Below are positions 1,843-56,222 of a stretch of DNA of 64,000 nt, piece by piece (position 1 is the first letter of the stretch; each line of letters starts with the position of its first letter). The stretch covers positions 3,100,001-3,164,000 of the forward strand of contig NZ_CP020880.1 in assembly GCF_002157855.1 (NCBI RefSeq). The letters are read 5' to 3'. Under the pieces are notes generated by a model. It saw only the letters and a program-made list of their open reading frames with translations. It had not been told where the DNA came from and made no database searches. The position numbers and the translations under genes were made by a program. Origin of the DNA: Sutcliffiella horikoshii. Lineage in GTDB: Bacteria; Bacillota; Bacilli; Bacillales; Bacillaceae_I.

Positions 1843-3315
1843 TTATTTGCCGATATAGCCACTGCCAGTTCCCGGTTCTTCGTTGTAATCATCGTTCGCA
1901 TTCCCGTTTCCTAATCCTGTGTTATTGTTGTTCGTGCCATCTGTGTTGGTATCATTATTCGAATTCGTCCCACCGGTGTTATTATTTTGGTTTCCGGTTG
2001 GATTGTTAGTATTGGTATTTGTACCGGATGTGTTCGTGTTGGTATTAGTGTTGCCGATATTGGTATTGCTCCCTGTATTTATGTTTGTGCCATTGTTCGT
2101 GTTTGGATTTGTATTTGTTCCGTTATTATTTCCAATTGTATTCGGATTGGTTGGATCTGTTGTAACGACAGGCTTAGTTAATGCATGTAATTCCACTCGC
2201 TGAATTGGAGCATAATAATCTTCACTGTAAACGAGCGTTTCTGTAATCTGCCCGGAAGCATCTGTTGCCGTTCGAACGAGCTGAACGTAAGAACCATTTT
2301 TGCCCGTCTCTTTTACACGCGTTCCTGAGCCTGGAATTGTTGCAGAATACTGAATAACGGTTTTAGGTGAAAGGGTCTGCATCTCCACTTGATTCACTTC
2401 ATATGTGAATGGAAGTGGAGCCCCATTTAATTCACCTGTAATCGTTGCACCATTGACTGAAATTGTGATGGTATATTCACTCGTATTTGGATTGGTAAAA
2501 GCAAAATCCATCTTTTCCTTTTGAAAACGTGCTTCATACCCCTCGTTGGCCCAAGTAGGAAGCTCTTTGGAAATATGCCGCTCCACTACACCGAAATTGG
2601 TAGGTGCTATTAATTCGAAAAGCATGGACGCCAACACGCTTGCAGCCTCATCAGATAAAGTCATCTCTTCATTTTCTAGCCAAGTATCAATGGAGAAGCC
2701 TTCATTTCCACGAAGTTTAATTTCCTTCCCATTTAAAACTTCCTGAAGTTCTGATATGGAAGTTTGCCCTGCAATATTCAACGTAATTTGAAGATTTGTC
2801 TGGTCCATCACTTCATCATCAACAAGGTAATCAGAAAATGAAAAAGTATGATCTCCTTCTTTAAGGTGAGAAGCTACTTCTTCCAAATCCTTTTTCAATT
2901 TCTCCGTATCCATGGCAGAAAAGATATCAGAAGTTTGAGAGAGCAATTCAATTTGTTCCAACAATGTTCCATTTGGAAGTTCTACCTTTAATGGATTATG
3001 AGAACTGTCTTCCGCAAGTTCTACCGATTCAGGAATGTAAAAAGTAAAAGCTTCTTTTGGGAAAGGTTGAAGTTCTCCCGCCCACTCTAAGTAGATTGTT
3101 CCGTTTGATAACCAGCTGTTTTTAGCAGCCTCCACCTTCTCCAACGCATCTGTTTTAGATCTATTGCTCACTTCCGCATTTGCGATAAGGGTAGATTCAG
3201 AAAATGAATTGGTGTGCGGCAGCCACTGATTAGTGACCAGGGTTCCCACTTGAGAAAAACCAAAAATAAATACTGTGCAAACTAGCAAAGCTGCCAATAG
3301 TTTTAGACTTTGCAT
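1843..3315 (-). CDS. Secreted VanW/G5-type surface protein with Asn/Thr/Gly-rich tail, pilus-linked
   Basis: 490 residues with an N-terminal hydrophobic segment (LKLLAALLVCTVFIFGF) that fits a signal peptide or membrane anchor. The middle (about residues 245-305, FGVVERHISKELPTWANEGY onward) resembles the VanW domain, and residues from about 315 to 375 (SATIPGSGTR through ETLVYSEDYYAPIQRVELHA) resemble a G5 domain, a fold linked with cell-wall binding. The last 100 or so residues are almost only N, T, G and P, a flexible spacer. The ATG at 3315 follows GGAGGG by 6 nt; an upstream TTG at 3333 is less likely. It is the gene before pilB, 22 bp apart, so a role in anchoring or passing the pilus through the wall is plausible but inferred. 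The usual VanW pattern is only partly recognisable, so the domain call is by eye. Confidence 0.72.
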   Translation of the reverse strand: MQSLKLLAALLVCTVFIFGFSQVGTLVTNQWLPHTNSFSESTLIANAEVSNRSKTDALEKVEAAKNSWLSNGTIYLEWAGELQPFPKEAFTFYIPESVELAEDSSHNPLKVELPNGTLLEQIELLSQTSDIFSAMDTEKLKKDLEEVASHLKEGDHTFSFSDYLVDDEVMDQTNLQITLNIAGQTSISELQEVLNGKEIKLRGNEGFSIDTWLENEEMTLSDEAASVLASMLFELIAPTNFGVVERHISKELPTWANEGYEARFQKEKMDFAFTNPNTSEYTITISVNGATITGELNGAPLPFTYEVNQVEMQTLSPKTVIQYSATIPGSGTRVKETGKNGSYVQLVRTATDASGQITETLVYSEDYYAPIQRVELHALTKPVVTTDPTNPNTIGNNNGTNTNPNTNNGTNINTGSNTNIGNTNTNTNTSGTNTNTNNPTGNQNNNTGGTNSNNDTNTDGTNNNNTGLGNGNANDDYNEEPGTGSGYIGK

Positions 3316-3380
3316 CCCTTTCCCTCCAAACAATCACCTAATCATTTTTTTATTGATTTTTTTAATCTGAGAACTTATTT

Positions 3381-5680: not shown

Positions 5681-5720
5681 AAAAAAACTCTCGCCAACTA
5701 TGGACGAGAGTTTTTTGTTT
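5681..5720. terminator. Bidirectional terminator between the anti-sigma and GGDEF genes
   Basis: ACTCTCG and CGAGAGT arms around an 11-nt loop, with A-runs on the left and T-runs on the right, so it can serve both converging genes. Confidence 0.85.
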
Positions 5721-7455
5721 ATGAAGTTTTCCGATACTCAGCCACTTTATTTCTGCCAGCTTTTTTCGCCCCGACATACATCGCTCTGTCTGCGTGGCGG
5801 ATCAAGTCCAGCGTGTCCTCGGCATCGTCTGGCGCTGTCGCGAACCCTATGCTTGCCGTTACCTTTACCATTTGAGCTCCTTGCGATTCACGAATATGCT
5901 GCTTAAGCGCAAAGGATCTTGTGGCTAAGTGCACCCTGATGCGTTCGGCGAGTTCAAAGCATTGGCCGCGTTCCATATCTGGAAGTAATATAACGAATTC
6001 CTCTCCACCATAACGGGCAACCGTACCTTTATTGCCAACAAGGGCAGTAAGTCTATCTGCAACCTGCATGAGAATCTCGTTTCCACTTTGATGTCCATAC
6101 ACATCGTTTACTTTCTTGAAGTGATCCAAGTCTAGCATGATGAGTGAGAGAGATTTGGAATGACCTTTGTTTAATTTATCGTATTCTTTATCTAATACAC
6201 TTTCAAAAAAGCGATAGTTGTAAAGTTTGGTTAATGCACAACGTTCACTTTTCTGTTTCGTTTCCTGATAGTGTCGTGCTTTTTCCATTGCTACCCCAAA
6301 GTATGAACAAAGGATATCCACAATCATTAATTGAGATTTATCATAAGTCCGTTTTGATGTGCTTGCTAACAATACCAGTCCTTCAATCTTGTGGTTTCGG
6401 ATAACCGGAACACACATCAAGCTCTCAATTTTTGCAGGAAGATGTGATTTGGACATATGCTTCCATTCTTTTTTCGTAAAATAGCAGACGCTTTTTCCAC
6501 GTTTTAGCATATAAGCCAAGAGCTCTTCATCATCAGTATGCAAGATAGCATTTGCCTCCACACTGTTCTCCTTGTCCATGACGCGAAGGACTTTCATGAT
6601 TTTTTCGCCATTCACATCAATGATCGCAGCATAATCCACCTTAAAGAGCGTCGAGATTTTATCTAAGAAGACATCCAGTACCCCTTGTGTATCAAGCCTT
6701 TCCGTCAACTGATGTCCGACATCCGCAGCTTGCTGAAGATAAACATTTACCTTCTGACTGGAATGATAAAGTTGAAGAATGAGAGTAAGGATGACAAACG
6801 GTAGTCCTACATACACTAGTGCTATCGGTCCGACTTGCTCATATAGCATGTATAGAATCAGACCTACAGGCAAGACCATGATGCTTGTTACAGCGTCCCA
6901 CTTGGTGTCAGGTGTGATGAATTTACTTTTCCGTTCATAAATTTGCACCTGGATAAAATAAAGGGCTACTGTATTAAGCGTGAAATAAACGAATTCATGT
7001 GCAAGAATCGGTGTAATGACACCTATACTTAGGAGCCTAGTATCACCAGGTGTCCCTCCAAGCAGATAGAAAACGAACCCGGCAATTAAAGATATGCCGG
7101 AAAACATGAGCATATTGATAGGGATCCTGAGTCTATTGTCACTGTTAAAGCGCATATATGCCATCAATGCGAGGACGGAGACTAAGGTCACAATCATTTC
7201 TATGAATAAACCGAAGGATAAGAGGGCCGCCAAGGAAACACCCTGCGCCAGAAATAATGGTACCTCTCCGACGACGATCGGGATAAGGGCGAGTATGATA
7301 GCTAACGCCAGAAATCCAATAATATGCCACATCGGCAAATCTTCAAACACAACAGGAGAAAGCTGATATCCTAGCCACAAAAAGATGGGTAACATGACAA
7401 CAAAGCTTGTCCAGATTACCACTTCTTTTTGGCGACTTACTGCTTGAACCACCAA
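5719..7455 (-). CDS. Membrane GAF-GGDEF diguanylate cyclase (DgcP/YtrP-like)
   Basis: 578 residues. The first 230 or so carry about seven to eight hydrophobic segments, then a GAF-like domain (about residues 260-400, LDVFLDKISTLFKVDYAAII and LMCVPVIRNHKIEGLVLLAS), then a GGDEF domain with the active-site loop YGGEEF and the metal/GTP motif LDLDHFKKVNDVYGH. It should make cyclic di-GMP at the membrane. The RxxD product-inhibition site, normally five residues before GGEEF, is absent (the stretch reads GNKGTVARY). I chose the TTG at 7455 because GGGAGGGG lies 5 nt upstream; a TTG at 7500 would give a longer N-terminus without a ribosome site. It lies 122 bp after folC in the same direction and may be read through from it. 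Confidence 0.85.
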   Translation of the reverse strand: MVVQAVSRQKEVVIWTSFVVMLPIFLWLGYQLSPVVFEDLPMWHIIGFLALAIILALIPIVVGEVPLFLAQGVSLAALLSFGLFIEMIVTLVSVLALMAYMRFNSDNRLRIPINMLMFSGISLIAGFVFYLLGGTPGDTRLLSIGVITPILAHEFVYFTLNTVALYFIQVQIYERKSKFITPDTKWDAVTSIMVLPVGLILYMLYEQVGPIALVYVGLPFVILTLILQLYHSSQKVNVYLQQAADVGHQLTERLDTQGVLDVFLDKISTLFKVDYAAIIDVNGEKIMKVLRVMDKENSVEANAILHTDDEELLAYMLKRGKSVCYFTKKEWKHMSKSHLPAKIESLMCVPVIRNHKIEGLVLLASTSKRTYDKSQLMIVDILCSYFGVAMEKARHYQETKQKSERCALTKLYNYRFFESVLDKEYDKLNKGHSKSLSLIMLDLDHFKKVNDVYGHQSGNEILMQVADRLTALVGNKGTVARYGGEEFVILLPDMERGQCFELAERIRVHLATRSFALKQHIRESQGAQMVKVTASIGFATAPDDAEDTLDLIRHADRAMYVGAKKAGRNKVAEYRKTS

Positions 7456-7577
7456 ACTTACCCCTCCCTTCTTTATCCTTTTTTCGACAGACTTTTGCAA
7501 TAATTAAATATTATCAAATTTTCTAACTTTTGTCACAACAAAAATAGGATAATTCTCCCTTATTTCTTTTCCCCACA

Positions 7578-8840
7578 TTATGTGAGTATAGTCCTAATAT
7601 CCGAAATGAAATATAAAGAACCGGTTATCAGCAGCACAGAATTGTCATCAAGCCTTGATATAGCAGTCTGTAACGCTGTTTTCCAATCCTCTTCAAACTC
7701 TTTTTTCTGAAGTTTACTGACCTGAAAAACATCTTCTGCACGTGCTGCCCGCGGAAAATTAAAAGTAGTAAAAATTATTTCATCTGCGATATTTTCTAAT
7801 TTGCGGACCATCAGTTCTATAGGTTTATCTTTTAAAGCGCTGAATAAGACAACTACCCTTTTATTAGAAAAATTTATTTTTATCGTATTCACTAATGCGT
7901 CAACAGCCTCTTCATTATGGGCGCCATCGAGAATAATAGGCGGGTTTTTTTGCACCAATTCAAATCGCCCAGGATGCTCTGCTTTCATTAGTCCAGCTTT
8001 TAACACTTGTTCATCAAATTCCATAGCCCAATTATCCATTAATAGTATATAAGCCATGATAGCCAGTGAAGCATTGGCAGCCTGATGCTCTCCCTGCAAA
8101 GATATCTCTAGCTCCTCCAAGTTTATCTGTACAGTTCGAAAAGAAAGCTTTCCTTTTTCCATTCCATAAGAAAATTCTTCTTCCATAAAATAGACCGGAC
8201 TTTCTTTCATTAATGCTTCTTTTTGAATGACCTCTTTTGCATCCGGTTTTTGTTCCCCGGAAATAACCGGGACTCTCCTTTTGATGATACCTGCTTTATG
8301 ATGGGCAATCTCTTCAACAGACGTTCCAAGAAACCCTATATGATCATGGCCAACGTTGGTGATGATGCTGAGTATGGGTGTCATTACATTCGTGGAATCC
8401 TCTCTCCCGCCAAGTCCTACTTCAAGCAACGCGATATCCACCTTTTTGATAGTGGCAAAATAATAAAATGCCATCGCCGTTTGCAGTTCAAATTCGGTTA
8501 ACCCGGCTTCTGCTAACCCATGCTCATTAAAAACGTGGATGATTTCCACCATTTCTTCATCTGTGATATAGGTTCCATTGACAGCTAATTGGTCATTGAT
8601 AAAGCGATATGCAGGTGAGTGGAAAACCCCTACCGCAAGTCCCGACTCTATTAATACACTCTCTAAAAAGCGTAAGGTAGAACCTTTCCCATTTGTCCCG
8701 CCGATATGGACAACCTTTATTTGATTTTGTGGACTACCCACTTTTTCTAAAAACTGAACAATCCTGTCCAGACCAAGATTTATTTCATTTTTTATCGTAA
8801 AATTCACTTTCTCTTGCAAATCTTTGAATGACAAGAACAT
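7578..8840 (-). CDS. folC: Folylpolyglutamate synthase / dihydrofolate synthase FolC
   Basis: 420 residues, cytoplasmic. It adds glutamate to dihydropteroate or folates in an ATP-dependent amide ligation. Mur-ligase-type motifs are all present: P-loop HIGGTNGKGST near residue 48, EVGLGGREDSTN, the TNVGHDHIGFLG block, HPGRFE, and LDGAHNEEA in the C-terminal domain. The ATG follows AAGGAGAT. In B. subtilis folC follows valS directly; here a five-gene plus-strand operon separates them, and the second FolC-like protein of that operon makes this copy the housekeeping one by its intact motifs. Confidence 0.93.
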   Translation of the reverse strand: MFLSFKDLQEKVNFTIKNEINLGLDRIVQFLEKVGSPQNQIKVVHIGGTNGKGSTLRFLESVLIESGLAVGVFHSPAYRFINDQLAVNGTYITDEEMVEIIHVFNEHGLAEAGLTEFELQTAMAFYYFATIKKVDIALLEVGLGGREDSTNVMTPILSIITNVGHDHIGFLGTSVEEIAHHKAGIIKRRVPVISGEQKPDAKEVIQKEALMKESPVYFMEEEFSYGMEKGKLSFRTVQINLEELEISLQGEHQAANASLAIMAYILLMDNWAMEFDEQVLKAGLMKAEHPGRFELVQKNPPIILDGAHNEEAVDALVNTIKINFSNKRVVVLFSALKDKPIELMVRKLENIADEIIFTTFNFPRAARAEDVFQVSKLQKKEFEEDWKTALQTAISRLDDNSVLLITGSLYFISDIRTILT

Positions 8841-8905: not shown

Positions 8906-10750
8906 ATGATTAATAAACTTCCAAACGCCTTCCCTGTTCCGGAAAACATCCGGACAGAATTCTCGAAAAATAAGAGTATGCTGGTTAAACGTTCTATCAT
9001 GTCGCCCTTGAGGCAATTAAAAGTGTATACAGGGACTTCTCCTATCTTAATGGTCATTCCGTCAACTGACATCAACTTGCTGGCTCTAGGGATAACGTTG
9101 CAAGAAGTCTCTAATTGTCACCTAATGATAATAAAAAGGTTGACTCCAAAGACAGAAAACAAGATAAATCGATATATCGCCCAATACAATATTCGTGGAT
9201 TGATTGGCGTGGAAGAGAAGGAAAATAACGGGTATGAATATATGTACAATGATCATTTTCATCCCCTCATAAACTATATAACAGAAAAATACATAGACAC
9301 AACTGTTCCAAATACCATTTCAACGGAAGAAGATTACTGCCTCAAAGAAAATAAACCATCTGTAAAGTTTTTCATCAATAAAAATGATGCAACCTCTTTT
9401 TTGCCTGTACTTCTTTCCTTATTAAAAGTGTTGCCAACCCAAATAGAGCATAACCAAGAACCTTGGACCACCGCTTCTGTGTCCGATGCGCATAAGGTTA
9501 CCATGATTACTCCTTTTAACCGCTTGGAATTGACAAGGGAAATGAAAGAAAAATGGGGACTAAATGAACATGATTATGTCTTTGTTCTGAATCCTATCAC
9601 AGGCTCTTTTCGTAAATGCGTGATCTATGAAACGAAGAAAAATTTAGGTGCTGATGAAGTCATTTTAAGTACTGGAGTTAAGAAAAGTTTGTTCGGTTCA
9701 TCAGCTGCTGAACCCATTCTTATCCAAAAGGCGGCAAGATTTCCCGTTCATCATATTCAAACACAGAGCGCGAGGGATGTTCAGTTAAATCGCATCATTG
9801 TATCGGAAAACATGATAAATATATTGAAGGCTACGGAATCGCCTTATATCGAATTAATGAATCCTCATACCGGCGCATCGTTTGACTTTCATATTTCTCA
9901 GTTAGCGCAACAGACAGGTCTATCGGACGATAAAACGATTAAGCTGAACTATATACAAAGACAGTTTTTAGACTACGAGCAGCCACCAGATTTCATTCCT
10001 CCCACTGTCTTAAAGGATCTTTGTCTGAATGTGAGTTTGACAGAGTCCGAACACCTTTTATTAAAAAGCACATACGAGGAAGGTAAAGTTTTGGAGCGGA
10101 TCAGCTATCAAGAATCCCTTCAACTGAAAAAATCACTAAAAAAAGCCGGATATTATCATACATTTATGTATCCTGTTAACCATTATTATAAGGAAGCGAA
10201 GAGGCTATCTGTAAAAAAGCGAATCAAAAACAAACTACTTACTGCTTTTATCGGAAACAAACAACTTTCCTTAAAGGTAATCAGGCCTTATACATCAGAC
10301 GAAACAAGCAATATCATCCGCTTGACGAAAAGTACCATGACCTTGCTTGGAATTGAAGAGGCAGATACGGTAATCTTATCTTATCGCAATAAAACAGCAA
10401 AAGCGCAAGTTCTGGAGATGAATGACCTAGAGATGATTAAAGAAACGAACATTATGTCTTCAAGCAGCATGATGAATATTTCCGTTGCAGTTCCATCCAC
10501 CATCAGGACTCACTTAGGATTGAACAATATCGGCAAAGTCATCCTTGTGGAACGTGATATGCCATTCCTTTTGAAGAAAAATTGGAACATTCAATTTGTC
10601 CCGATTATCGCGGTCATGTTCACCGTTCTATCCGTTTCCATTTTTACAACATGGACCCGAATTTTATTGCTCTTACTTTTCGTCCCATTATCTATGTATG
10701 TTACGCTATCAAGAGTTCGCTATAGCATCTCCAATAAAAAACAGAGTTAA
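8906..10750 (+). CDS. Unrecognised membrane protein with repeated small barrel-like modules; first gene of the ligase operon
   Basis: 614 residues; I cannot assign a family. Up to three related stretches are visible: TPFNRLELTREMKEKWGLNE (near 200), NRIIVSENMINILKATE (near 297) and IIRLTKSTMTLLGIEEAD plus ISVAVPSTIRTHLGLNN (near 470-540). Each is a short strand, a helix ending in a Gly-Leu turn, then V-rich strands, the look of double-psi or AbrB-like barrels. Two hydrophobic helices close the protein (VPIIAVMFTVLSVSIF and LLLLLFVPLSMYVTL), so it is probably anchored by its C-terminus. The ATG has GAGGTGG 6 nt upstream. It is divergent from folC (65 bp) and 22 bp ahead of the next gene, so it is read as the head of a five-gene operon. 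Confidence 0.8.
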   Translation: MINKLPNAFPVPENIRTEFSKNKSMLVKRSIMSPLRQLKVYTGTSPILMVIPSTDINLLALGITLQEVSNCHLMIIKRLTPKTENKINRYIAQYNIRGLIGVEEKENNGYEYMYNDHFHPLINYITEKYIDTTVPNTISTEEDYCLKENKPSVKFFINKNDATSFLPVLLSLLKVLPTQIEHNQEPWTTASVSDAHKVTMITPFNRLELTREMKEKWGLNEHDYVFVLNPITGSFRKCVIYETKKNLGADEVILSTGVKKSLFGSSAAEPILIQKAARFPVHHIQTQSARDVQLNRIIVSENMINILKATESPYIELMNPHTGASFDFHISQLAQQTGLSDDKTIKLNYIQRQFLDYEQPPDFIPPTVLKDLCLNVSLTESEHLLLKSTYEEGKVLERISYQESLQLKKSLKKAGYYHTFMYPVNHYYKEAKRLSVKKRIKNKLLTAFIGNKQLSLKVIRPYTSDETSNIIRLTKSTMTLLGIEEADTVILSYRNKTAKAQVLEMNDLEMIKETNIMSSSSMMNISVAVPSTIRTHLGLNNIGKVILVERDMPFLLKKNWNIQFVPIIAVMFTVLSVSIFTTWTRILLLLLFVPLSMYVTLSRVRYSISNKKQS

Positions 10751-10772
10751 TAACCAAAAGGATGGAGCCCTC

Positions 10773-11429
10773 ATGAATTTTAATCTATGGGAAAAAACAT
10801 TCATTGAAGAAAGCTTTCAAGGCAATCAAGAAGGCTTTCACTATATCCAAGGCGACCTGCCAATTATCTTATCTGCTCCCCACAGCGTTACGCAGCAACG
10901 TAAGGGAAAAGAGAAACAGGGAGAGTTCCTGACAGGCCCAATGGTCATGCACCTTCAGCAACAATTAAACTGTCATGCCATCTTTAAAACGAAAAATCTG
11001 ATGGATGATGCCAATTACAATCCTAAAAGTACGTATCGTAATTTTATAAAAAAGATAGTCGATGAACATTCCATTAACTTTCTATTGGATTTGCATATTA
11101 TGGCACCTTCCAGACCTTATAATATCGACCTTGGCACCGGTAGAGGCAAAAATATCAGACACAGTCAAGGTCCAAAGATTGTTAATCATATACAAAAGAC
11201 TCTGTTAGCCCAAGGCATCAATGATGTACTTATCGATCATATCTTTACCGCAGGCTACCCACATACGGTATCTGCCGATGTTTCAAAAAGCTGCGATATC
11301 TTTTGTTTGCAAATAGAAATGAATTGGAGGTTGCTTGAAGGCGCATCCGATTCCGTTTACTTTGAAAAGATTCTTACCGCATTGGAGACCATCATTCATT
11401 ATCTTGCATCAATGGAGGATTACACATGA
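10773..11429 (+). CDS. N-formylglutamate amidohydrolase-like metallohydrolase
   Basis: 218 residues. Family motifs seen: LSAPHSV near residue 30, GEFLTGPM (about residue 50), LLDLHIMAPSRP (about residue 105) and the late IEMNWRLL block. In the N-formylglutamate amidohydrolase family such His, Glu and Asp residues bind zinc and the enzyme cleaves an amide next to glutamate or a related residue. The ATG at 10773 has GGATGGAG 5 nt upstream; longer forms begin inside the previous gene and are rejected. The stop overlaps the next gene as ATGA, so the two are translationally coupled. In this operon it may trim or recycle the product of the ligases, which is inference. Confidence 0.78.
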   Translation: MNFNLWEKTFIEESFQGNQEGFHYIQGDLPIILSAPHSVTQQRKGKEKQGEFLTGPMVMHLQQQLNCHAIFKTKNLMDDANYNPKSTYRNFIKKIVDEHSINFLLDLHIMAPSRPYNIDLGTGRGKNIRHSQGPKIVNHIQKTLLAQGINDVLIDHIFTAGYPHTVSADVSKSCDIFCLQIEMNWRLLEGASDSVYFEKILTALETIIHYLASMEDYT

Positions 11430-12337
11430 AACAACTATTATGCTGGATTATCTATAACGGAAACCTTCCTCAGCAAAAATTTATCGAACTAGCTGAGTGG
11501 TTTGATACGGAAGCTAAAAAACATAATATTTCTACTAAGCTCATGAAAAACAATGACCTGTTACCAAGTGTGACAGATGGGAACGCAACATTGGTAGGAG
11601 TTCATCACAAGCATGAGCTGCCAGATTTCGTTTTTTTTCTGGACAAAGACGTGTTACTTGCCCGCCAACTAGAAAAAATGGGCATTCCCGTTTATAACAG
11701 TGCTTCCTGCATTGAAATTTGTGATAACAAATCGCTCACATTCCAAACACTTGCAGATCACGGCATACCGATGCCAAAAACCCTTATAGCACCAATGGTA
11801 TTTCATGCTCATGAAAATCTTGAGCCCTTTTACCATGCTGCTGAAATACTAGGCTTTCCACTTGTATTAAAAGAAGCTTACGGATCATTCGGAATGCAGG
11901 TTTTTTTGATTGAAACCATAGAAGAACTGCTCGCGAAAATCAAGGAAATAGGAAACCGACCTTTTCTCTTGCAAGAATTCATCTCTTCTAGCAAAGGCAA
12001 AGATATCCGTTTAAATGTCGTGGGAGATGAGGTGGTTGCCTCAATGATGCGAATATCGGAAACTGATTTCCGGGCAAACGTGAGTAATGGTGGGAAAATG
12101 TTGAAATATGAACCGACGGCACTGGAAAAAGAAATCGCCATTCGAAGCGCGAAACTTGTGGGAGCAGATTTTGCCGGGGTAGATCTCCTATTTGCAGAAG
12201 ACGGATCTCCACTTGTTTGTGAAATAAACTCCAATGCCCATATCAAAAATATCTTTGATTGCACCGGAATCAATGTCGCAACCTATATTGTCCCACATAT
12301 TTTGAAGAAATGGCAAGAGACCCAAAATGAAAGCTAG
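11426..12337 (+). CDS. ATP-grasp amino-acid ligase, RimK-like (first of two)
   Basis: 303 residues. The N-terminal third is a pre-ATP-grasp domain. The ATP-grasp core is well kept: FPLVLKEAYGSFGMQVFLI (about residue 142), LLQEFISSSKGKDIRLNVVG, NVSNGGKMLKYEPTALE, and the metal-binding VDLLFAEDGSPLVCEINSNA near the C-terminus. This matches the RimK/LysX group that joins an amino acid to a carboxylate using ATP through an acyl phosphate. It overlaps the previous gene by 4 bp and the next one by 11 bp. The substrate cannot be read from the sequence. It shares only the general fold with the following gene (about one third look alike), so the two ligases are not a recent duplicate. Confidence 0.85.
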   Translation: MKQLLCWIIYNGNLPQQKFIELAEWFDTEAKKHNISTKLMKNNDLLPSVTDGNATLVGVHHKHELPDFVFFLDKDVLLARQLEKMGIPVYNSASCIEICDNKSLTFQTLADHGIPMPKTLIAPMVFHAHENLEPFYHAAEILGFPLVLKEAYGSFGMQVFLIETIEELLAKIKEIGNRPFLLQEFISSSKGKDIRLNVVGDEVVASMMRISETDFRANVSNGGKMLKYEPTALEKEIAIRSAKLVGADFAGVDLLFAEDGSPLVCEINSNAHIKNIFDCTGINVATYIVPHILKKWQETQNES

Positions 12338-13208
12338 AGGCTTGCTTATATACGAAGAAGAACACGCCAAAAAGAATAAAGCGTTTATAGAATGGTTTTT
12401 GGACGAGGCAGCTAAGCTTGAGATTGAGTTAGGTTTTATCCTACAGTCGAGGATTTCTTTTGGCGTTCATAACAATCAGTTGGTCCTTTTATTGGGTGAT
12501 GCACCATTGAGTGAACCACCAGACTTTGTCATCATGCGGAATATAGATCCACTTTTTAATGAACAGCTGGAACGGATGCGCATCCCTTGCTTCAACTCAC
12601 ATCACGTTTCCGTTATCTGTAACGATAAGGCGAGGACTCATCAATACTTAGCAGGCAAAGGGATACCGATGTTGGATACATACTTCATGGAAGCTGACGA
12701 ACTCCTTACAGGAAATCTGCCTCTTCCAATGCCATTTATCATTAAAACGCGGACTGGCAGAGGCGGTGGTGATATTTATATGGTGGAAGATTTGGGACAA
12801 TTGGAAGCGGTACAAGACCAACTTTCCAATCAATCCATAATCCTTCAACCACTTGCCGGGTCACCTGGGAAAGACTTGCGTGTTTATGTATTGGGACGGA
12901 AAGTTGTTGGAGCTGTACTTCGCTCCAATAAAAATAGCTTTAAAGCCAACTTTACTCTTGGCGGGCAGGCAGAGGCTTATACGCTTAGCAAAGAAGAATT
13001 GATAGTCGTCAACAAGATTATAGAGCAGTTTGATTTCGGACTCGTTGGCATTGACTTTTTGTTTGATGAAAATGGTGGCCTGCTTTTTAATGAAATAGAA
13101 GATGTTGTTGGCTGCCGGACACTATGCTTAACAAGCGACATCAATATTGTGAAACGGTACTTGGAAATTATTTTACAAAAGCTTGGATTGGGAGGGGAAC
13201 CCACATGA
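12327..13208 (+). CDS. ATP-grasp amino-acid ligase, RimK-like (second of two)
   Basis: 293 residues, same fold as its neighbour. Core motifs are FIIKTRTGRGGGDIYMVED (about residue 138), ILQPLAGSPGKDLRVYVLG, KANFTLGGQAEAY, IDFLFDENGGLLFNEIEDVVG. The metal-binding end reads NEIEDVVGCRTL instead of the NEINSNA form of the first ligase, which suggests another substrate or a different position in the product. Its start overlaps the first ligase gene by 11 bp and its stop overlaps the next gene as ATGA. Both ligases appear catalytically complete by motif. Confidence 0.83.
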   Translation: MKARGLLIYEEEHAKKNKAFIEWFLDEAAKLEIELGFILQSRISFGVHNNQLVLLLGDAPLSEPPDFVIMRNIDPLFNEQLERMRIPCFNSHHVSVICNDKARTHQYLAGKGIPMLDTYFMEADELLTGNLPLPMPFIIKTRTGRGGGDIYMVEDLGQLEAVQDQLSNQSIILQPLAGSPGKDLRVYVLGRKVVGAVLRSNKNSFKANFTLGGQAEAYTLSKEELIVVNKIIEQFDFGLVGIDFLFDENGGLLFNEIEDVVGCRTLCLTSDINIVKRYLEIILQKLGLGGEPT

Positions 13209-14539
13209 CTTTTCTGACCATGAAAGAAGCTGTTCCTTATATCTATTCCTCGCTGCTTAAAGCAAAGCCATTTCAAAGCGAGGAAAACGATGCGCTAACT
13301 CGGGCACCACATTTAACGAAGGAGTTATTGAGTTGTCTTGATCTTATCCCTTCCGGTGACAAAGTGATCCTTGTCACCGGGAGTAAGGGAAAAGGCTCCA
13401 GTTCCCGGATGATAGCAGCAATCCTCCGCAAAATGGGGTTGAAGGTTGGGTTATTTACCTCCCCCCATCTGATTGATTATAACGAGCGAATCCGGGTGAA
13501 CGGAAAAGCAATTTCAGACGAAATGTTTCTTACTTATTTGAATCAACATGCGCCTATCATTGATAAGATAACAGCTTCCATTGAAAATCCTAAGCATTAT
13601 CTTGGGCCAACGGGAATCCTACTGTCAGTTGCACTTGCCCATTTTCAATCAGAATCAACCGACATTAATGTCATTGAAATTGGTCGCGGCGGCACGTACG
13701 ATGACACGAATGTATTAGAAAATAAATGGGCTGTTGTGTCTAAGATTATGGAAGAACATCTTGGGTTCCTTGGGCATTCACTGGAAGATATCGTCCGGCA
13801 TAAAGTTGGGATTGTGAAAGAGTGTACGGACCATGTAGTGATTGGAAAACAGTCAGGGGAAACGTTGGAGCTGATGCGTAGTTTGGTTGGTGATACGGCG
13901 GCTTTTTATGGTGATGATTTCACACCTACGCTCACCTCAGCTAGTTTAAAGGGCTGTTCATTTACTTTACAGACCATGTGTGGGCGGTACGACGACCTAT
14001 CCCTCCCGTTATTGGGATCGTTTCAAGTGGAAAATGCAGCACTAGCGGTGCAGGCCTGCGAAACAGTGATGGGGCGAGCGCTCCCGAGTGACTTTTTGAA
14101 AGAAGCATTATCGGAGTTAAAATGGCCGGGTAGACTTGAAGTGGTTGCTGAGAACCCAACGGTTGTGTTGGATGGTTCCATTAACCGTGTCTCTGCAGCG
14201 TATTTAAAGGAAGTCCTGCCTCTTGTAGATTCCCGGAAGGTAGTTACTATCATTGCGGTTCCTTCCAATAAAGATTATGAGGGAGTTATTCAAGTTTGCA
14301 GCGAGTTTTCAGATATGTTGGTTGTGACGATGCCTGACAACTCACATAAGAAATTTCCGGATGATGCACTTGCTGTTGCCCGTAAATATCACACCGATGC
14401 CGTGGAAGTGGGGTTGCTATCTGAGGCAGTCGAATTAGTGAGGACTTTTAAGCCTACTCTCATCTTTGTTGTTGGCACGCAGTCAATGATTGGCAGTGCC
14501 AAGGAGATTTGGAAAGATTCATTGATGGATATTGGATAG
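13205..14539 (+). CDS. FolC/Mur-ligase paralogue with altered signature
   Basis: 444 residues. P-loop VTGSKGKGSSSRMIA (about residue 60), SPHLIDYNERIRVNG, the EIGRGGTYDDTNV block (FolC has EVGLGGR.D.TN), EHLGFLGHSLEDIVRHKVGIVK, WPGRLEVV and, where FolC has LDGAHN, LDGSINRVSA. The fold and ATP site fit the Mur ligase/FolC family, which forms amides to glutamate or other amino acids, but the lost His-Asn pair and changed Gly-rich block say it is not a second folate enzyme. ATG at 13205 with GGAGGGG 8 nt upstream; an in-frame ATG at 13124 lies inside the preceding gene and is rejected. A terminator follows at 14546. Confidence 0.82.
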   Translation: MTFLTMKEAVPYIYSSLLKAKPFQSEENDALTRAPHLTKELLSCLDLIPSGDKVILVTGSKGKGSSSRMIAAILRKMGLKVGLFTSPHLIDYNERIRVNGKAISDEMFLTYLNQHAPIIDKITASIENPKHYLGPTGILLSVALAHFQSESTDINVIEIGRGGTYDDTNVLENKWAVVSKIMEEHLGFLGHSLEDIVRHKVGIVKECTDHVVIGKQSGETLELMRSLVGDTAAFYGDDFTPTLTSASLKGCSFTLQTMCGRYDDLSLPLLGSFQVENAALAVQACETVMGRALPSDFLKEALSELKWPGRLEVVAENPTVVLDGSINRVSAAYLKEVLPLVDSRKVVTIIAVPSNKDYEGVIQVCSEFSDMLVVTMPDNSHKKFPDDALAVARKYHTDAVEVGLLSEAVELVRTFKPTLIFVVGTQSMIGSAKEIWKDSLMDIG

Positions 14540-14545
14540 AATGAT

Positions 14546-14588
14546 GCTCCAGTCACCACTCCTTGTGTTGGCTGGAGCTATTTTTAAT
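14546..14588 (+). terminator. Terminator of the five-gene ligase operon
   Basis: GCTCCAG and CTGGAGC arms with a 19-nt loop, followed by TATTTTTAATTT, 7 bp after the last stop codon. Confidence 0.85.
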
Positions 14589-14921: not shown

Positions 14922-17570
14922 TTATCCCTTCAACTCATCAATGCGAGCTTGAACGGCATCACGCTTTTCTACATAATCTTTTTCTTTTGCTTTCTCTTCT
15001 TCGATTACATTTGCAGGTGCTTTCGCGATGAAGCCTTGGTTGGAAAGCTTCTTCTGCACGCGCTCCACTTCTTTATCAAGCTTCGCAAGCTCCTTGTTCA
15101 GACGAGCAATCTCTTCGTCAATGTTGATCAGGCCTAACAATGGAAGAATCAATTCTGCTCCAGTCACCACTGCTGTCATCGCCTTCTCGCCGCCATCTAA
15201 TGAAACATCTGTTCCGATTAACAGCTCGCTTGGGTTACAGAAGCGCTCTAAGTAAGAACGGTTGCTCTCAAGCTTCGAGGCAATCTCAGAAGTTTTCGCT
15301 TTTACAAGCAATTTAACCTGCTTGCTCATTGGCGTGTTCACTTCTGCACGAACGTTTCGTACGCTGCGGATGATGTCCACTAGCAAACGCATATCTGCTG
15401 CTGCTTCTTTGTCGGTCAACTCATCGCGAACTTCCGGCCATTTTGCAGTCGTAATGGACTCGCCTTCGTGAGGAAGTTGCTGCCAGATCTCCTCTGTGAT
15501 GAATGGCATGAATGGGTGCAACAGGCGCATCGTGTTATCCAATACGTAAGCTAAAATAGAGCGAGTTGTCTTTTTAGCCGCTTCATCTTCGCTATACAAT
15601 GGAATTTTCGCCATTTCAATATACCAGTCACAGAAATCATCCCAGATGAAGTTGTAAAGGGCACGACCCACTTCACCGAACTCATATTTTTCAGCAAGCT
15701 TGGTTACGGTCTCGATTGTTTCGTTCAAACGAGTGAGGATCCACTTGTCTGCAACGGACTTTTCGCCGCTCAAATCGATATCTTCAAATTTCATATCGCC
15801 CATATTCATCAAAGCAAATCGGGATGCGTTCCAGATCTTATTGGCAAAGTTCCAAGTGGACTCTACTTTTTCATAGCTGAAGCGTAAATCCTGACCTGGT
15901 GAGCTTCCAGTAGAAAGGAAATAACGCAGGGAATCTGCACCGTACTTTTCAATAACATCCATTGGATCTACACCGTTACCAAGGGATTTACTCATCTTGC
16001 GTCCTTCCTCATCACGAACAAGTCCGTGAATCAGAACATCTTTAAATGGACGCTCGCCAGTGAATTCTAGTCCTTGGAAAATCATACGGGAAACCCAGAA
16101 TGCAATGATATCATAACCTGTTACTAGGCAATCTGTTGGGTAGAAACGTTGATAGTCCGGTGATTCTGTTTCCGGCCAGCCCATTGTCGAGAACGGCCAT
16201 AACGCAGAACTGAACCATGTATCAAGAACGTCTGTATCCTGCTCCCAATTTTCAATATCTTCCGGTGGGTTATGGTCAACATGGATTTCTCCTGTTTCTT
16301 TGTTATACCAAGCTGGAATTCGGTGGCCCCACCATAGCTGACGGGAGATACACCAGTCACGGATATTTTCCATCCAACGCATGTATGTGTTCTCAAAGCG
16401 GTTCGGTACGAAATTAACCTTGTCTTCTTGGGACTGTAGATCAATCGCCTTATCCGCAAGCGGCTGCATTTTAACGAACCATTGTGTGGAAAGATACGGC
16501 TCAACAACCGCTCCGCTTCGCTCACTGTGACCAACGGAATGCATGTGCTCTTCAATTTTGAAAAGAACGCCACTTTCCTGCAAGTCTTTTACTAGCTGCT
16601 TACGGCATTCGAAACGATCCATCCCATTGTATTTACCGGCTTTCTCGTTCATGCTGCCGTCTTCATGCATTACTAGGATACGTTCTAAGTTATGACGGTT
16701 TCCGATTTCAAAGTCGTTCGGGTCATGTGCTGGCGTAATTTTCACTGCACCGGAACCAAACTCCATGTCTACATAATCATCGGCTACGATTGGAATCTCA
16801 CGGCCAGTGATAGGCAGTGTTACCATTTTTCCGATTAGGTGCTTGTAGCGCTCGTCTTCCGGATGAACCGCAACCGCTGTATCTCCAAGCATCGTTTCAG
16901 GACGTGTTGTTGCAATTTCAATGGAACCAGAACCATCTGTCAGAGGGTATCTCATATGATAGAAGGCACCTTGAACATCTTGGTGAATTACCTCGATATC
17001 AGAAAGAGCCGTTTTAGTTGCAGGATCCCAGTTGATGATGTATTCTCCGCGGTAGATAAGGCCGTTTTTATAAAGCGTTACAAATACTTCGTTAACTGCT
17101 TTGGATAGCCCTTCGTCCAATGTGAAACGCTCGCGGCTGTAGTCAAGGCCAAGTCCCAGCTTGGACCATTGTTCACGAATATGTTTTGCGTATTCGTCTT
17201 TCCACTTCCACGCTTCTTCCATGAACTTTTCACGGCCAAGTTCATAACGGTTGATTCCTTGGTTGCGAAGTTTTTCGTCAACTTTCGCTTGCGTTGCGAT
17301 TCCTGCGTGGTCCATTCCCGGCAACCATAGAACATCAAAGCCTTGCATACGCTTCATGCGTGTGATGATGTCTTGCAGGGTAGTGTCCCATGCGTGCCCT
17401 AGGTGAAGGCGGCCTGTTACGTTTGGTGGTGGGATAACGATGGTGTATGGTGTTTTGTCCTGGTCATTTGTCGCTTCAAAAAAGCGGCCGTCCAGCCAGT
17501 ATTGATAACGGTTTTTTTCGATTGTTTGTGGATCATATTTTGTCGGAAGGTTTACTTCATTCATTTCCAT
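14922..17570 (-). CDS. valS: Valyl-tRNA synthetase ValS
   Basis: 882 residues, the normal length for the family. It charges tRNA-Val with valine and edits misactivated threonine. Class I signatures: the HIGH box as HLGH (RLHLGHAWD, about residue 50) and KMSKS ([11 protein letters not shown], about residue 525). The editing domain (about 200-340), the anticodon-binding domain (after 600) and the C-terminal coiled-coil arm ([20 protein letters not shown]) are all present. ATG at 17570 follows AGGAGG; an upstream ATG at 17624 falls inside the leader terminator region. Expression is controlled by the T-box leader just upstream. Confidence 0.96.
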
Positions 17571-17604
17571 CCTTTTTCTCCTCCTATTTGTTCCAAAATA
17601 AAAT

Positions 17605-17880
17605 AAAAAACTCCCTTCATCCAAATAAAAGGACGAAAGGAGTTAAGTTTCGCGGTACCACCTTTTTTTACAGGGTGAAAAAGATAGACTTTTCCCTGTA
17701 CACTCAAATCTGTTAACGGCTCTCCACCGGTTTCAACTACTAGACGCGATGCGTTCGCTGAAACTACTCAAGGGCGACCTTCCAATCCGACTTTCCTGAG
17801 AAACCTTTCAGCTGATGGTTTCCCTCTCTAAAGGGGTCTGCAATTGTACTCTTCCCTGTCACTGTATTTGATCGTTATCT
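17605..17880 (-). promoter_or_regulatory. T-box leader of valS
   Basis: On the minus strand the leader carries the T-box core GGTGGTACCGCG (17649-17663), which pairs with the free CCA end of uncharged tRNA, and a terminator stem (AACTCCTTTCGTCC with GGATGAAGGGAGTT) followed by TTTTTTATTTT just before valS. The long stem I region lies upstream. Which codon forms the specifier was not resolved by eye. Confidence 0.93.
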
Positions 17881-55932: not shown

Positions 55933-56178
55933 ATAAAAAAACAGCAATGAGCTAATGTCTCATTGCTGTGATTGGTAAAATAAAGAATCCGTTCACGCGG
56001 TGAGATAGCTCTCCAGGCAGCACAAAGACAACCTGACAGTCCTACATTTCTTAAACGCAGAACCAGTAAAAAAAAGAAAAAGAGACTTTTTTTTACTTCG
56101 GCGATCCTCCCCTTTCCGTAATCATCTCGGAAGCTCTTTCTTCTCCGATTACATACTTTTGAAGTTCGCACCTCTATC
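55933..56178 (-). promoter_or_regulatory. Lysine riboswitch (L box) with terminator, upstream of lysC
   Basis: The minus strand carries GATAGAGGTGCGAAC at the 5' side and CTGGAGAGCTATC at the 3' side (P1 arms), the core GGGGAGGATCGCCGAAGT and AGGACTGTCAGG. The terminator (ACAGCAATGAG with CTCATTGCTGT, then TTTTTTTA) follows. One arm is an 11-bp A/T stem GTAAAAAAAAG/CTTTTTTTTAC. Lysine binding should stop transcription before lysC. Confidence 0.95.
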
Positions 56179-56222
56179 ATCACTTCATCGATTTGAAGTG
56201 GCACATTATGAAATTAATAGTG

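What the first reader, a model, noticed from the sequence alone, without database searches (positions are those of the whole stretch)
8906..14588. Five-gene coupled operon of ATP-dependent ligases and an amidohydrolase, a candidate new system
Seen: five plus-strand genes (unknown barrel/membrane protein; N-formylglutamate amidohydrolase-like; two RimK-like ATP-grasp ligases; a FolC/Mur-ligase paralogue), the last four overlapping by 4, 11 and 4 bp, closed by one terminator. Known: ATP-grasp plus Mur-ligase pairing makes cyanophycin, and Mur-ligase PgsB makes poly-gamma-glutamate; FGase-like enzymes cleave glutamate-type amides. Inference: this operon builds, and trims, an amide-linked amino-acid product in or near the membrane. 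The combination is not one I recognise.
Basis: partly seen in the sequence, partly recalled or inferred. Interest (0 to 1): 0.85.

Follow-up and report, generated by a model that had tools for sequence, protein, structure and literature searches.

The report
Modular amide-bond building and trimming operon
This is a real, conserved but rare bacterial gene set of amide-bond-making enzymes, one likely amide-cutting enzyme and a membrane-anchored barrel protein; its parts recur in different combinations in relatives, and its product is unknown.

Summary
In detail: five plus-strand genes A-E (8906-14539), overlaps 4, 11 and 4 bp, then a strong terminator. A = double-psi beta-barrels plus C-terminal membrane helices; B = FGase/poly-gamma-glutamate-hydrolase fold; C, D = RimK-class ATP-grasp ligases; E = a separate clade of FolC-like (Mur-type) ligases. 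I found the full five-gene form in 6 genomes of two genera. It is built of modules: A-B (one cluster in 18 of 18 A-bearing genomes), C-D (adjacent in 40 of 41 fetched loci holding both; 33 of 41 next to folC) and E (mostly with C-D, a third ATP-grasp or a second FolC-like gene). A-B joins C-D in 13 of 18 genomes; the other 5 carry E. Most likely C, D and E add amino acids, probably glutamate, to a small acceptor, B trims, and A docks this at the membrane; substrate and product are unproven. E lost a FolC Phe recalled as pterin-site and changed 14 positions conserved in FolC, so E is probably no folate enzyme. The listed results of ten library searches describe no such set; the key 2009 amidoligase survey was not held. 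New variant of a known kind.

The parts
8906..10750 (+). Gene A, 614 aa: N-terminal alpha/beta region, double-psi beta-barrels (about residues 186-276 and 277-356, third at 450-552), two C-terminal membrane helices
   Evidence: Pfam CDC48_N 9.3e-5 at 456-510, below cut-off; weak phmmer matches of 454-526 to designed DPBB proteins, E 0.27 and above; AlphaFold2 mean pLDDT 71; Foldseek 7dg9 E 6.5e-7; barrel 1 vs 2 hhalign prob 91%, 1 vs 3 only 42%, 2 vs 3 under 1%; hydropathy
10773..11429 (+). Gene B, 218 aa: predicted metal-dependent amidohydrolase of the FGase / poly-gamma-glutamate hydrolase fold
   Evidence: H37, D106, H108, E182, N184 invariant in 22 aligned members; Pfam FGase in 18 of 22 members; AlphaFold2 pLDDT 94; Foldseek 2odf, 2q7s, 3a9l, 21dc
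11426..12337 (+). Gene C, 303 aa: RimK-class ATP-grasp ligase 1
   Evidence: TIGR00768 rimK_fam 202 bits, cut-off 143; nearest solved RimK 5zct 6.8e-33; invariant Lys, Asp and E-x-N residues of E. coli RimK kept in 45 of 45
12327..13208 (+). Gene D, 293 aa: RimK/LysX-class ATP-grasp ligase 2, with E-x-E where RimK and C have E-x-N
   Evidence: Pfam RimK 4.7e-23; rimK_fam 121 bits, below cut-off 143; nearest solved 3vpb 1.2e-24; E258 in 44 of 45
13205..14539 (+). Gene E, 444 aa: FolC-like Mur-type ligase of a separate clade
   Evidence: TIGR01499 239 bits, cut-off 163; nearest solved 1fgs 1.6e-55; clade of 19 with support 100/100 apart from 40 local FolC; 14 substituted positions that are at least 90% conserved in FolC
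14546..14588 (+). Intrinsic terminator closing the operon
   Evidence: fold -23.2 kcal/mol, z -5.6; sequence
7578..8840 (-). folC, the ordinary FolC paralogue, divergent neighbour (65 bp to A)
   Evidence: TIGR01499 384 bits; tree
14922..17624 (-). valS, convergent neighbour that marks the conserved site (gene name by recall)
   Evidence: valS 90-99% identical in the family loci and 78% in G058; T-box leader at 17626-17871

Best explanation
The operon encodes a small 'write and trim' system for amide-linked amino-acid chains. Inferred steps: C adds the first amino acid(s), probably L-glutamate, through an acyl-phosphate to a carboxylate of a small acceptor; D, with a different metal-site residue and its own invariant residues, adds the next; in this genus E, a FolC-like ligase with a changed acceptor pocket, adds a further residue; B, a metal-dependent amidohydrolase, removes or shortens the chain; A, anchored by two C-terminal helices, holds substrate or enzymes at the membrane with its double-psi barrels. 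Shown: domain classes, catalytic residues kept, tight coupling, and recurrent but modular linkage. Inferred: substrate, order of action, glutamate as the added residue, and a trimming role for B.
For: Enzyme classes: C, D, E, B. Residues: C and D keep the equivalents of E. coli RimK K100, K141, Q177, D187, R189, R203, N213, D248 and E260 in 45 of 45 each; E keeps the equivalents of window FolC K52, E140, H167, K182, R292 and D305 in 19 of 19. Coupling: C-D adjacent on one strand in 40 of 41 fetched loci holding both, overlapping in 30 of 41, also at sites away from folC. B lies in A's cluster in 18 of 18 A-bearing genomes (window); 13 of 18 hold C-D, in Alicyclobacillus tolerans on another contig; the other 5 hold E. 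In the 397 order genomes, 11 of 13 A-bearing ones are among the 96 with a C/D hit at E <= 1e-35 (hypergeometric 5e-6, no correction for kinship). Precedent: MyfA and MyfB, two ATP-grasp ligases proposed to act in turn on the methylofuran polyglutamate chain (PMC8141765, passages); RimK with its trimming peptidase RimB, and the rlo operon of peptidase, membrane protein and ATP-grasp (PMC12239564, passages).
Against: No product, substrate or expression data. A-B and E are often missing while C-D stays, so trimming, membrane docking and E are not always needed; C-only and D-only loci exist too (2 and 2 of the 47 loci given to the script). Relatedness inflates the co-occurrence numbers. Distances of C, D and folC correlate alike (C-folC 0.92, D-folC 0.88, C-D 0.89), so much linkage is plain vertical inheritance. 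D departs from RimK at one metal-ligand position. B's fold list also holds amidases, carboxypeptidases and nucleosidases, so its substrate is open. A's N-terminal region has no identified fold and the model of A is of middling confidence.
Confidence: 0.45

Rival explanations
1. Folate-tail editing: C and D add alpha-linked (or further) glutamates to folylpolyglutamates made by the neighbouring FolC, and B clips them.
For: C-D sits next to folC in 33 of 41 loci, in 7 of them with valS more than 4 kb away; RimK-family relatives act on pterin and F420 tails (MptN, CofF model hits; their functions named in the model titles); alpha linkages in the distal tail of E. coli folates are reported (PMC1971073, passage); in G847 an E gene lies directly before folC.
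Against: 8 of 41 C-D loci have no folC in the fetched stretch. E, the FolC paralogue, has T, V or I in 19 of 19 where E. coli FolC has F124, and changed E125 and H305 (19 of 19 each) and R361 (H in 16, Y in 2); that F124 lies in the pterin site is recalled, a review only says that Phe among others stacks on the pterin (PMC4790348, passages). No folate-type riboswitch met the Rfam thresholds in the 6 sources scanned. folC adjacency can be plain synteny.
Confidence: 0.2
2. Polymer synthesis: a storage or envelope polyamide, such as polyglutamate or cyanophycin-like material, is made by ATP-grasp plus Mur-type ligase and remodelled by B.
For: ATP-grasp plus Mur-type ligase pairing, as in CphA; E also lies beside another, divergent RimK-like ATP-grasp in 6 genomes; B folds like phage poly-gamma-glutamate hydrolases and 2 of 22 members hit Gamma_PGA_hydro (best E 0.0045); A has membrane helices.
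Against: C 42.5 bits and E 41.3 bits against the cyanophycin-synthetase cut-off of 850; E 16.4 against the PgsB cut-off of 222.7. No exporter gene between folC and valS in the window. Most C-D loci that I fetched have neither E, A nor B.
Confidence: 0.15
3. Protein modification: C and D add residues to a protein (as RimK does to S6), A presents the target and B reverses it.
For: C scores above the rimK_fam cut-off; the four nearest solved sequences to C are RimK or alpha-L-glutamate ligases; the third barrel of A resembles the CDC48 N-domain, which binds protein partners; RimK/RimB precedent.
Against: RimK equivalog not met (106.5 of 331 bits). C has invariant residues (D73, K74, D75, E150, Q158; 45 of 45 each) that E. 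coli RimK lacks. Two ligases in tandem, plus a FolC-like ligase, suit a small molecule better (inference). The S6 protein of this genome was not examined.
Confidence: 0.12
4. Peptide natural product or carrier-bound pathway (graspetide or LysW type).
For: RimK/LysX relatedness: D's nearest solved structure is 3vpb (recalled as the ArgX enzyme of a LysW pathway).
Against: C-D gaps are 15 bp or less in 38 of 41 loci and folC-C gaps mostly near 100 bp, leaving no dedicated precursor or carrier gene inside those operons; graspetide ligase model 22 bits against a cut-off of 475. Genes elsewhere in the genomes were not searched.
Confidence: 0.08

Closest known systems
MyfA/MyfB of methylofuran biosynthesis (PMC8141765, passages read)
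   Same: two ATP-grasp ligases proposed to act in turn on one polyglutamate chain; MyfB is MptN/RimK-like
   Different: not described there with an FGase-fold hydrolase, a DPBB membrane protein or a FolC-like partner (passages only). I made no direct sequence comparison.
RimK/RimB and the rlo operon of Pseudomonas (PMC12239564, passages read)
   Same: ATP-grasp ligase with a trimming peptidase (rim), or with peptidase and membrane protein (rlo)
   Different: there a retropepsin-like peptidase and a transglutaminase-like membrane protein; here an FGase-fold hydrolase, a DPBB membrane protein, two ATP-grasps and a Mur-type ligase
FolC (folylpolyglutamate synthase)
   Same: P-loop Lys and other catalytic positions, TIGR01499 score above cut-off
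   Different: separate clade; 14 positions conserved in FolC substituted; equivalent of E. coli F124 lost
Cyanophycin synthetase CphA
   Same: ATP-grasp plus Mur-type ligase chemistry
   Different: separate proteins of other subfamilies; 42.5 and 41.3 bits against a cut-off of 850
N-formylglutamate amidohydrolase and phage PghP
   Same: predicted fold; conserved His, Asp-x-His and Glu
   Different: no Pfam hit for the window protein itself; TM-scores by query only 0.50-0.62; partners differ

Membership tests
RimK-family alpha-L-glutamate ligase (gene C) | TIGR00768 subfamily score at or above 143.4 bits | tested here: met
   202.4 bits
RimK-family alpha-L-glutamate ligase (gene D) | TIGR00768 subfamily score at or above 143.4 bits | tested here: not met
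   121.4 bits, though PF08443 RimK is above its cut-off (82.2 of 21)
RimK, LysX, MptN, CofF equivalogs (genes C, D) | equivalog score cut-offs | tested here: not met
   C: RimK 106.5/331, LysX 144.8/275.6, MptN 126.4/350, CofF 73.4/300; D lower in each
RimK-type catalysis (genes C, D) | metal-binding D and E-x-N (role recalled) | tested here: inconclusive
   C: met in 45 of 45. D: Asp and first Glu in 45 of 45, Asn replaced by Glu in 44 of 45
FolC bifunctional synthase (gene E) | TIGR01499 subfamily score at or above 162.65 bits | tested here: met
   239 bits
FolC bifunctional synthase (gene E) | residues conserved in FolC (E. coli F124, E125, H305, R361, S403) | tested here: not met
   F equivalent lost in 19 of 19; E to G 18, H to I 19, R to H 16, S to T 18 of 19
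FolC bifunctional synthase (gene E) | folylpolyglutamate synthase activity | not testable with these tools
   needs purified enzyme
N-formylglutamate amidohydrolase PF05013 (gene B) | gathering score 28.9 bits | tested here: not met
   window protein no hit; 18 of 22 members hit at E up to 1, best 7e-8; the B gene of G981 23.8 bits
FGase / poly-gamma-glutamate hydrolase fold (gene B) | predicted structure matches FGase and PghP | tested here: met
   Foldseek 2odf 8.1e-7, 2q7s 5.6e-6, 3a9l 6.7e-6; TM by query 0.50-0.62 over these and 21dc
Double-psi beta-barrel of CDC48-N type (gene A) | DPBB fold | tested here: met
   7dg9 E 6.5e-7, TM by target 0.87; but Pfam CDC48_N 23 bits is below its cut-off of 35.1
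Cyanophycin synthetase | TIGR02068 850 bits | tested here: not met
   C 42.5, E 41.3
Poly-gamma-glutamate synthase PgsB | TIGR04012 222.7 bits | tested here: not met
   E 16.4
Graspetide (ATP-grasp RiPP) cluster | maturase-model score; precursor gene in the cluster | tested here: not met
   MvdD model 22.3/475 for C; no room for a precursor inside the operon; precursors elsewhere not searched
LysW-type carrier pathway | LysW-like carrier gene | tested here: inconclusive
   little intergenic room in the loci; rest of the genomes not searched
Anti-phage defence system | PADLOC model hit | tested here: not met
   0 hits at E <= 0.01 for 7 proteins

The most novel reading that the evidence does not exclude
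A modular 'write, trim and dock' system of Bacillota, in which a DPBB membrane protein plus FGase-fold hydrolase unit is joined to interchangeable amide ligases (a tandem RimK-like pair, a FolC-like clade, or that clade with a third ATP-grasp; the same clade elsewhere pairs with a second FolC-like ligase), makes a still unknown amino-acid-tailed small molecule or polymer.
Probability: 0.35. Interest if true: 0.8.

Novelty: new variant of a known kind. Interest (0 to 1): 0.5.

Why it matters
Ligases of the C-D kind are in 85 (E <= 1e-60, counted by eye, 14 families) to 96 (E <= 1e-35) of 397 sampled genomes of the order, so an unassigned amide-forming pathway may be common in soil bacilli. The exchange of ligases around a conserved hydrolase-membrane unit gives a handle on what the parts share. 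If the acceptor proves to be folate, the finding would bear on who adds unusual glutamates to folate tails; if not, it points to an undescribed tailed cofactor or polymer.

Tried and rejected
Considered and dropped: folate riboswitch near the operon (none in 6 sources); phage origin of E (24 phage records match, all below 60% identity; of the 20 shown, one is annotated folC and the others bear no annotation, several being short fragments; I read them as ordinary FolC); defence system; plasmid-borne copies (A: one archaeal partial hit, 30%; B: none; C, D, E not searched in plasmids); a dedicated small carrier or precursor inside the loci (no room); E as a recent duplicate of the local folC (rejected by the tree). 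Counting all phylum hits of B as the system was rejected: of 17 of 398, 15 show no A, C, D or E among the ORFs displayed within about 8 kb on either side (one contig end is nearer), the other two being the window and G082. The sigma-70-like scan was uninformative (15 sites against 15.6 in shuffles). Mirror-tree comparison showed little beyond vertical descent (partial r of C and D given folC 0.42).


Full report
WHAT IS THERE. The five genes exist as described: A 8906-10750, B 10773-11429, C 11426-12337, D 12327-13208, E 13205-14539, all plus strand, overlaps 4, 11 and 4 bp, A-B gap 22 bp, then a hairpin of -23.2 kcal/mol (z -5.6) with a U-run. The operon lies between folC (minus, 7578-8840) and valS (minus, 14922-17624).

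DOMAINS. A: Pfam CDC48_N 9.3e-5, under its cut-off; AlphaFold2 mean pLDDT 71 from 8 sequences; Foldseek to double-psi barrels of VCP-like ATPases (7dg9, E 6.5e-7). Barrels 1 and 2 resemble each other by profile (91%), 1 against 3 only weakly (42%), 2 against 3 not; two membrane helices at the C-terminus by hydropathy. B: no Pfam hit alone; FGase in 18 of 22 members at E up to 1, best 7e-8, and Gamma_PGA_hydro in 2 of 22; model pLDDT 94 matching FGase 2odf and 2q7s and phage poly-gamma-glutamate hydrolases 3a9l and 21dc, but also amidases, carboxypeptidases and, lower in the list, nucleosidases. C: rimK_fam 202 bits, above cut-off; D: 121 bits, below. E: FolC subfamily 239 bits, above cut-off, and below the equivalog cut-offs shown.

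RESIDUES. On 45 C and 45 D sequences (duplicates by their last 150 residues dropped) and E. coli RimK, both ligases keep RimK's K100, K141, Q177, D187, R189, R203, N213, D248 and E260. C keeps the E-x-N motif in 45 of 45; D has E-x-E in 44 of 45. C and D each have further invariant residues absent from E. coli RimK, so their acceptors probably differ from S6 and from each other (inference). On 19 E, 40 local FolC and E. coli FolC, E keeps the P-loop Lys, the Glu, the His, K200, the Arg and the Asp that FolC keeps, but substitutes 14 positions that are at least 90% conserved in FolC; the equivalent of E. coli F124 is T, V or I in 19 of 19. That F124 is in the dihydropteroate site, and the roles of the catalytic residues, are recalled; a review states only that Phe among others stacks on the pterin (PMC4790348, passages). 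I infer that E can catalyse but does not use folate.

DISTRIBUTION. Genus: D in 13 of 16 and E in the same 13 of 16 (matches of 710 bits or more; the remaining matches of 204 bits or less are FolC); full-length A in 5 of 16, with a decayed A and no B in G012. Order: 96 of 397 genomes have a hit to the D profile at E <= 1e-35, 85 of 397 at E <= 1e-60 (counted by eye; the weaker 11 include C-only and partial hits); A in 13 of 397; E in 17 of 299 at E <= 1e-80. Class: A in 4 of 398. Phylum: B profile in 17 of 398, of which 15 are solo genes, 1 the window and 1 G082. One genome-contig scan with B found 7 loci: three in this genus, Paenibacillus thermotolerans (B-C-D-A), Peribacillus tepidiphilus (B-C-D-A between valS and folC), Alicyclobacillus tolerans (B-A) and an uncultured Clostridia MAG (B-C-D, contig end nearby).

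MODULES. A-bearing genomes known to me: 18 (G000, G001, G003, G007, G009, G016, G058, G848 = P. tepidiphilus, G889, G930, G952, G915, G981, G082, G624, G753, P. thermotolerans, A. tolerans). In 18 of 18, B is in the same cluster (window). In 13 of 18, C-D is present: 12 in the cluster, and A. tolerans on another contig. The other 5 have E beside B-A; C was not found at E <= 1e-10 in the three of genus g50, and no C/D hit at E <= 1e-35 in the other two. Four of these five have a convergent third RimK-like ATP-grasp beside E; G915 has none in the fetched stretch. E is in 11 of 18, and also occurs without A-B: with C-D in 8 genomes of this genus, with the third ATP-grasp in G022 and G885, behind a second FolC-like gene in G832 and G1041, next to folC in G847, and alone in G024. 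Of the 19 E rows in the tree, 16 have another ligase besides folC in the fetched stretch; G915, G847 and G024 do not. C-D: of 47 loci given to the script (L022 dropped as a duplicate of L098; the window, L155 and L156 not included), 41 hold both, adjacent on one strand in 40, overlapping in 30; 33 of 41 next to folC, counting those with A, B or E between; 8 have no folC in the fetched stretch; 2 hold C only, 2 D only, and the 2 others are B-A-E loci. Loci were chosen from hits, about one or a few per genus, so these are counts of what I fetched, not frequencies.

CO-OCCURRENCE. In the same 397 order genomes, 11 of 13 with A are among the 96 with C/D (hypergeometric 5e-6, or 1e-6 with 85). Kinship is not corrected; the 11 fall in five families. 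The two exceptions (G915, G981) have the B-A-E form.

TREE. E forms a clade of 19 with 100/100 support, apart from 40 FolC; the second FolC-like gene of G832 and G1041 is a third group (the program warns that the long branches of the E clade and of this third group meet). C, D and folC distances correlate alike, i.e. mostly vertical descent.

LITERATURE. Ten library searches listed no paper whose title or shown abstract start describes this set; two of them were about FolC residues, and searches listed only part of what matched. The most relevant survey (Iyer et al. 2009) is not held, so an earlier mention there cannot be excluded. Passages, not whole texts, were read of PMC10861534, PMC2922099, PMC4431377, PMC8141765, PMC11915815, PMC12239564, PMC1971073 and PMC4790348; of PMC10861534 also the abstract and section list. 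They supply precedents: ATP-grasp ligases MyfA and MyfB building one polyglutamate chain; RimK countered by a peptidase; the rlo operon.

VERDICT. A real, conserved, modular amidoligase-hydrolase system whose complete five-gene form is, so far, known to me from two genera. The best reading is an amino-acid-tail writer and trimmer with membrane docking (0.45). The acceptor is open: folate is attractive for C-D by position, but E speaks against it. New variant of a known kind; interest 0.5.

Noticed in passing
L176 5570-8258; L179 6572-9301: Two FolC-like genes in tandem: E preceded by a second, very divergent FolC-like paralogue.
   Followed up: partly
L042 4770-5567; L157 10465-11271; L174 5897-6775; L178 6022-6813: A small (about 265 aa) RimK-like ATP-grasp gene convergent with E, with or without A-B nearby.
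   Followed up: partly
L043-L057: A solo family of about 230-aa FGase-like proteins in other Bacillota (15 of 398 phylum genomes), with no A, C, D or E among the ORFs displayed around them.
   Followed up: partly
L017 8527-8833; L105 5720-6403: Decay of the A-B module: remnants of A with B missing in G012; B split into two ORFs in G1131, while C and D have open frames.
   Followed up: yes
window 17626-17871 (-) and 55998-56184 (-): T-box leader before valS, and a lysine riboswitch.
   Followed up: no
window 5719-7500 (-): Membrane protein with a GGDEF-like C-terminus (by eye) downstream of folC; a similar-sized neighbour of about 578 aa recurs beside folC in many loci. L099 has a c-di-GMP-II riboswitch at 3251-3334.
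   Followed up: no
L058 7455-8537: A Halobacterium hubeiense plasmid protein is 30% identical to the third barrel and membrane part of A (E 3e-11), with no ligase gene annotated in the 16-kb stretch shown.
   Followed up: partly
L115 5974-11912: The only fetched locus with C and D apart (4.2 kb). The genes between look like a spore-germination (Ger) cluster by eye, not tested.
   Followed up: no
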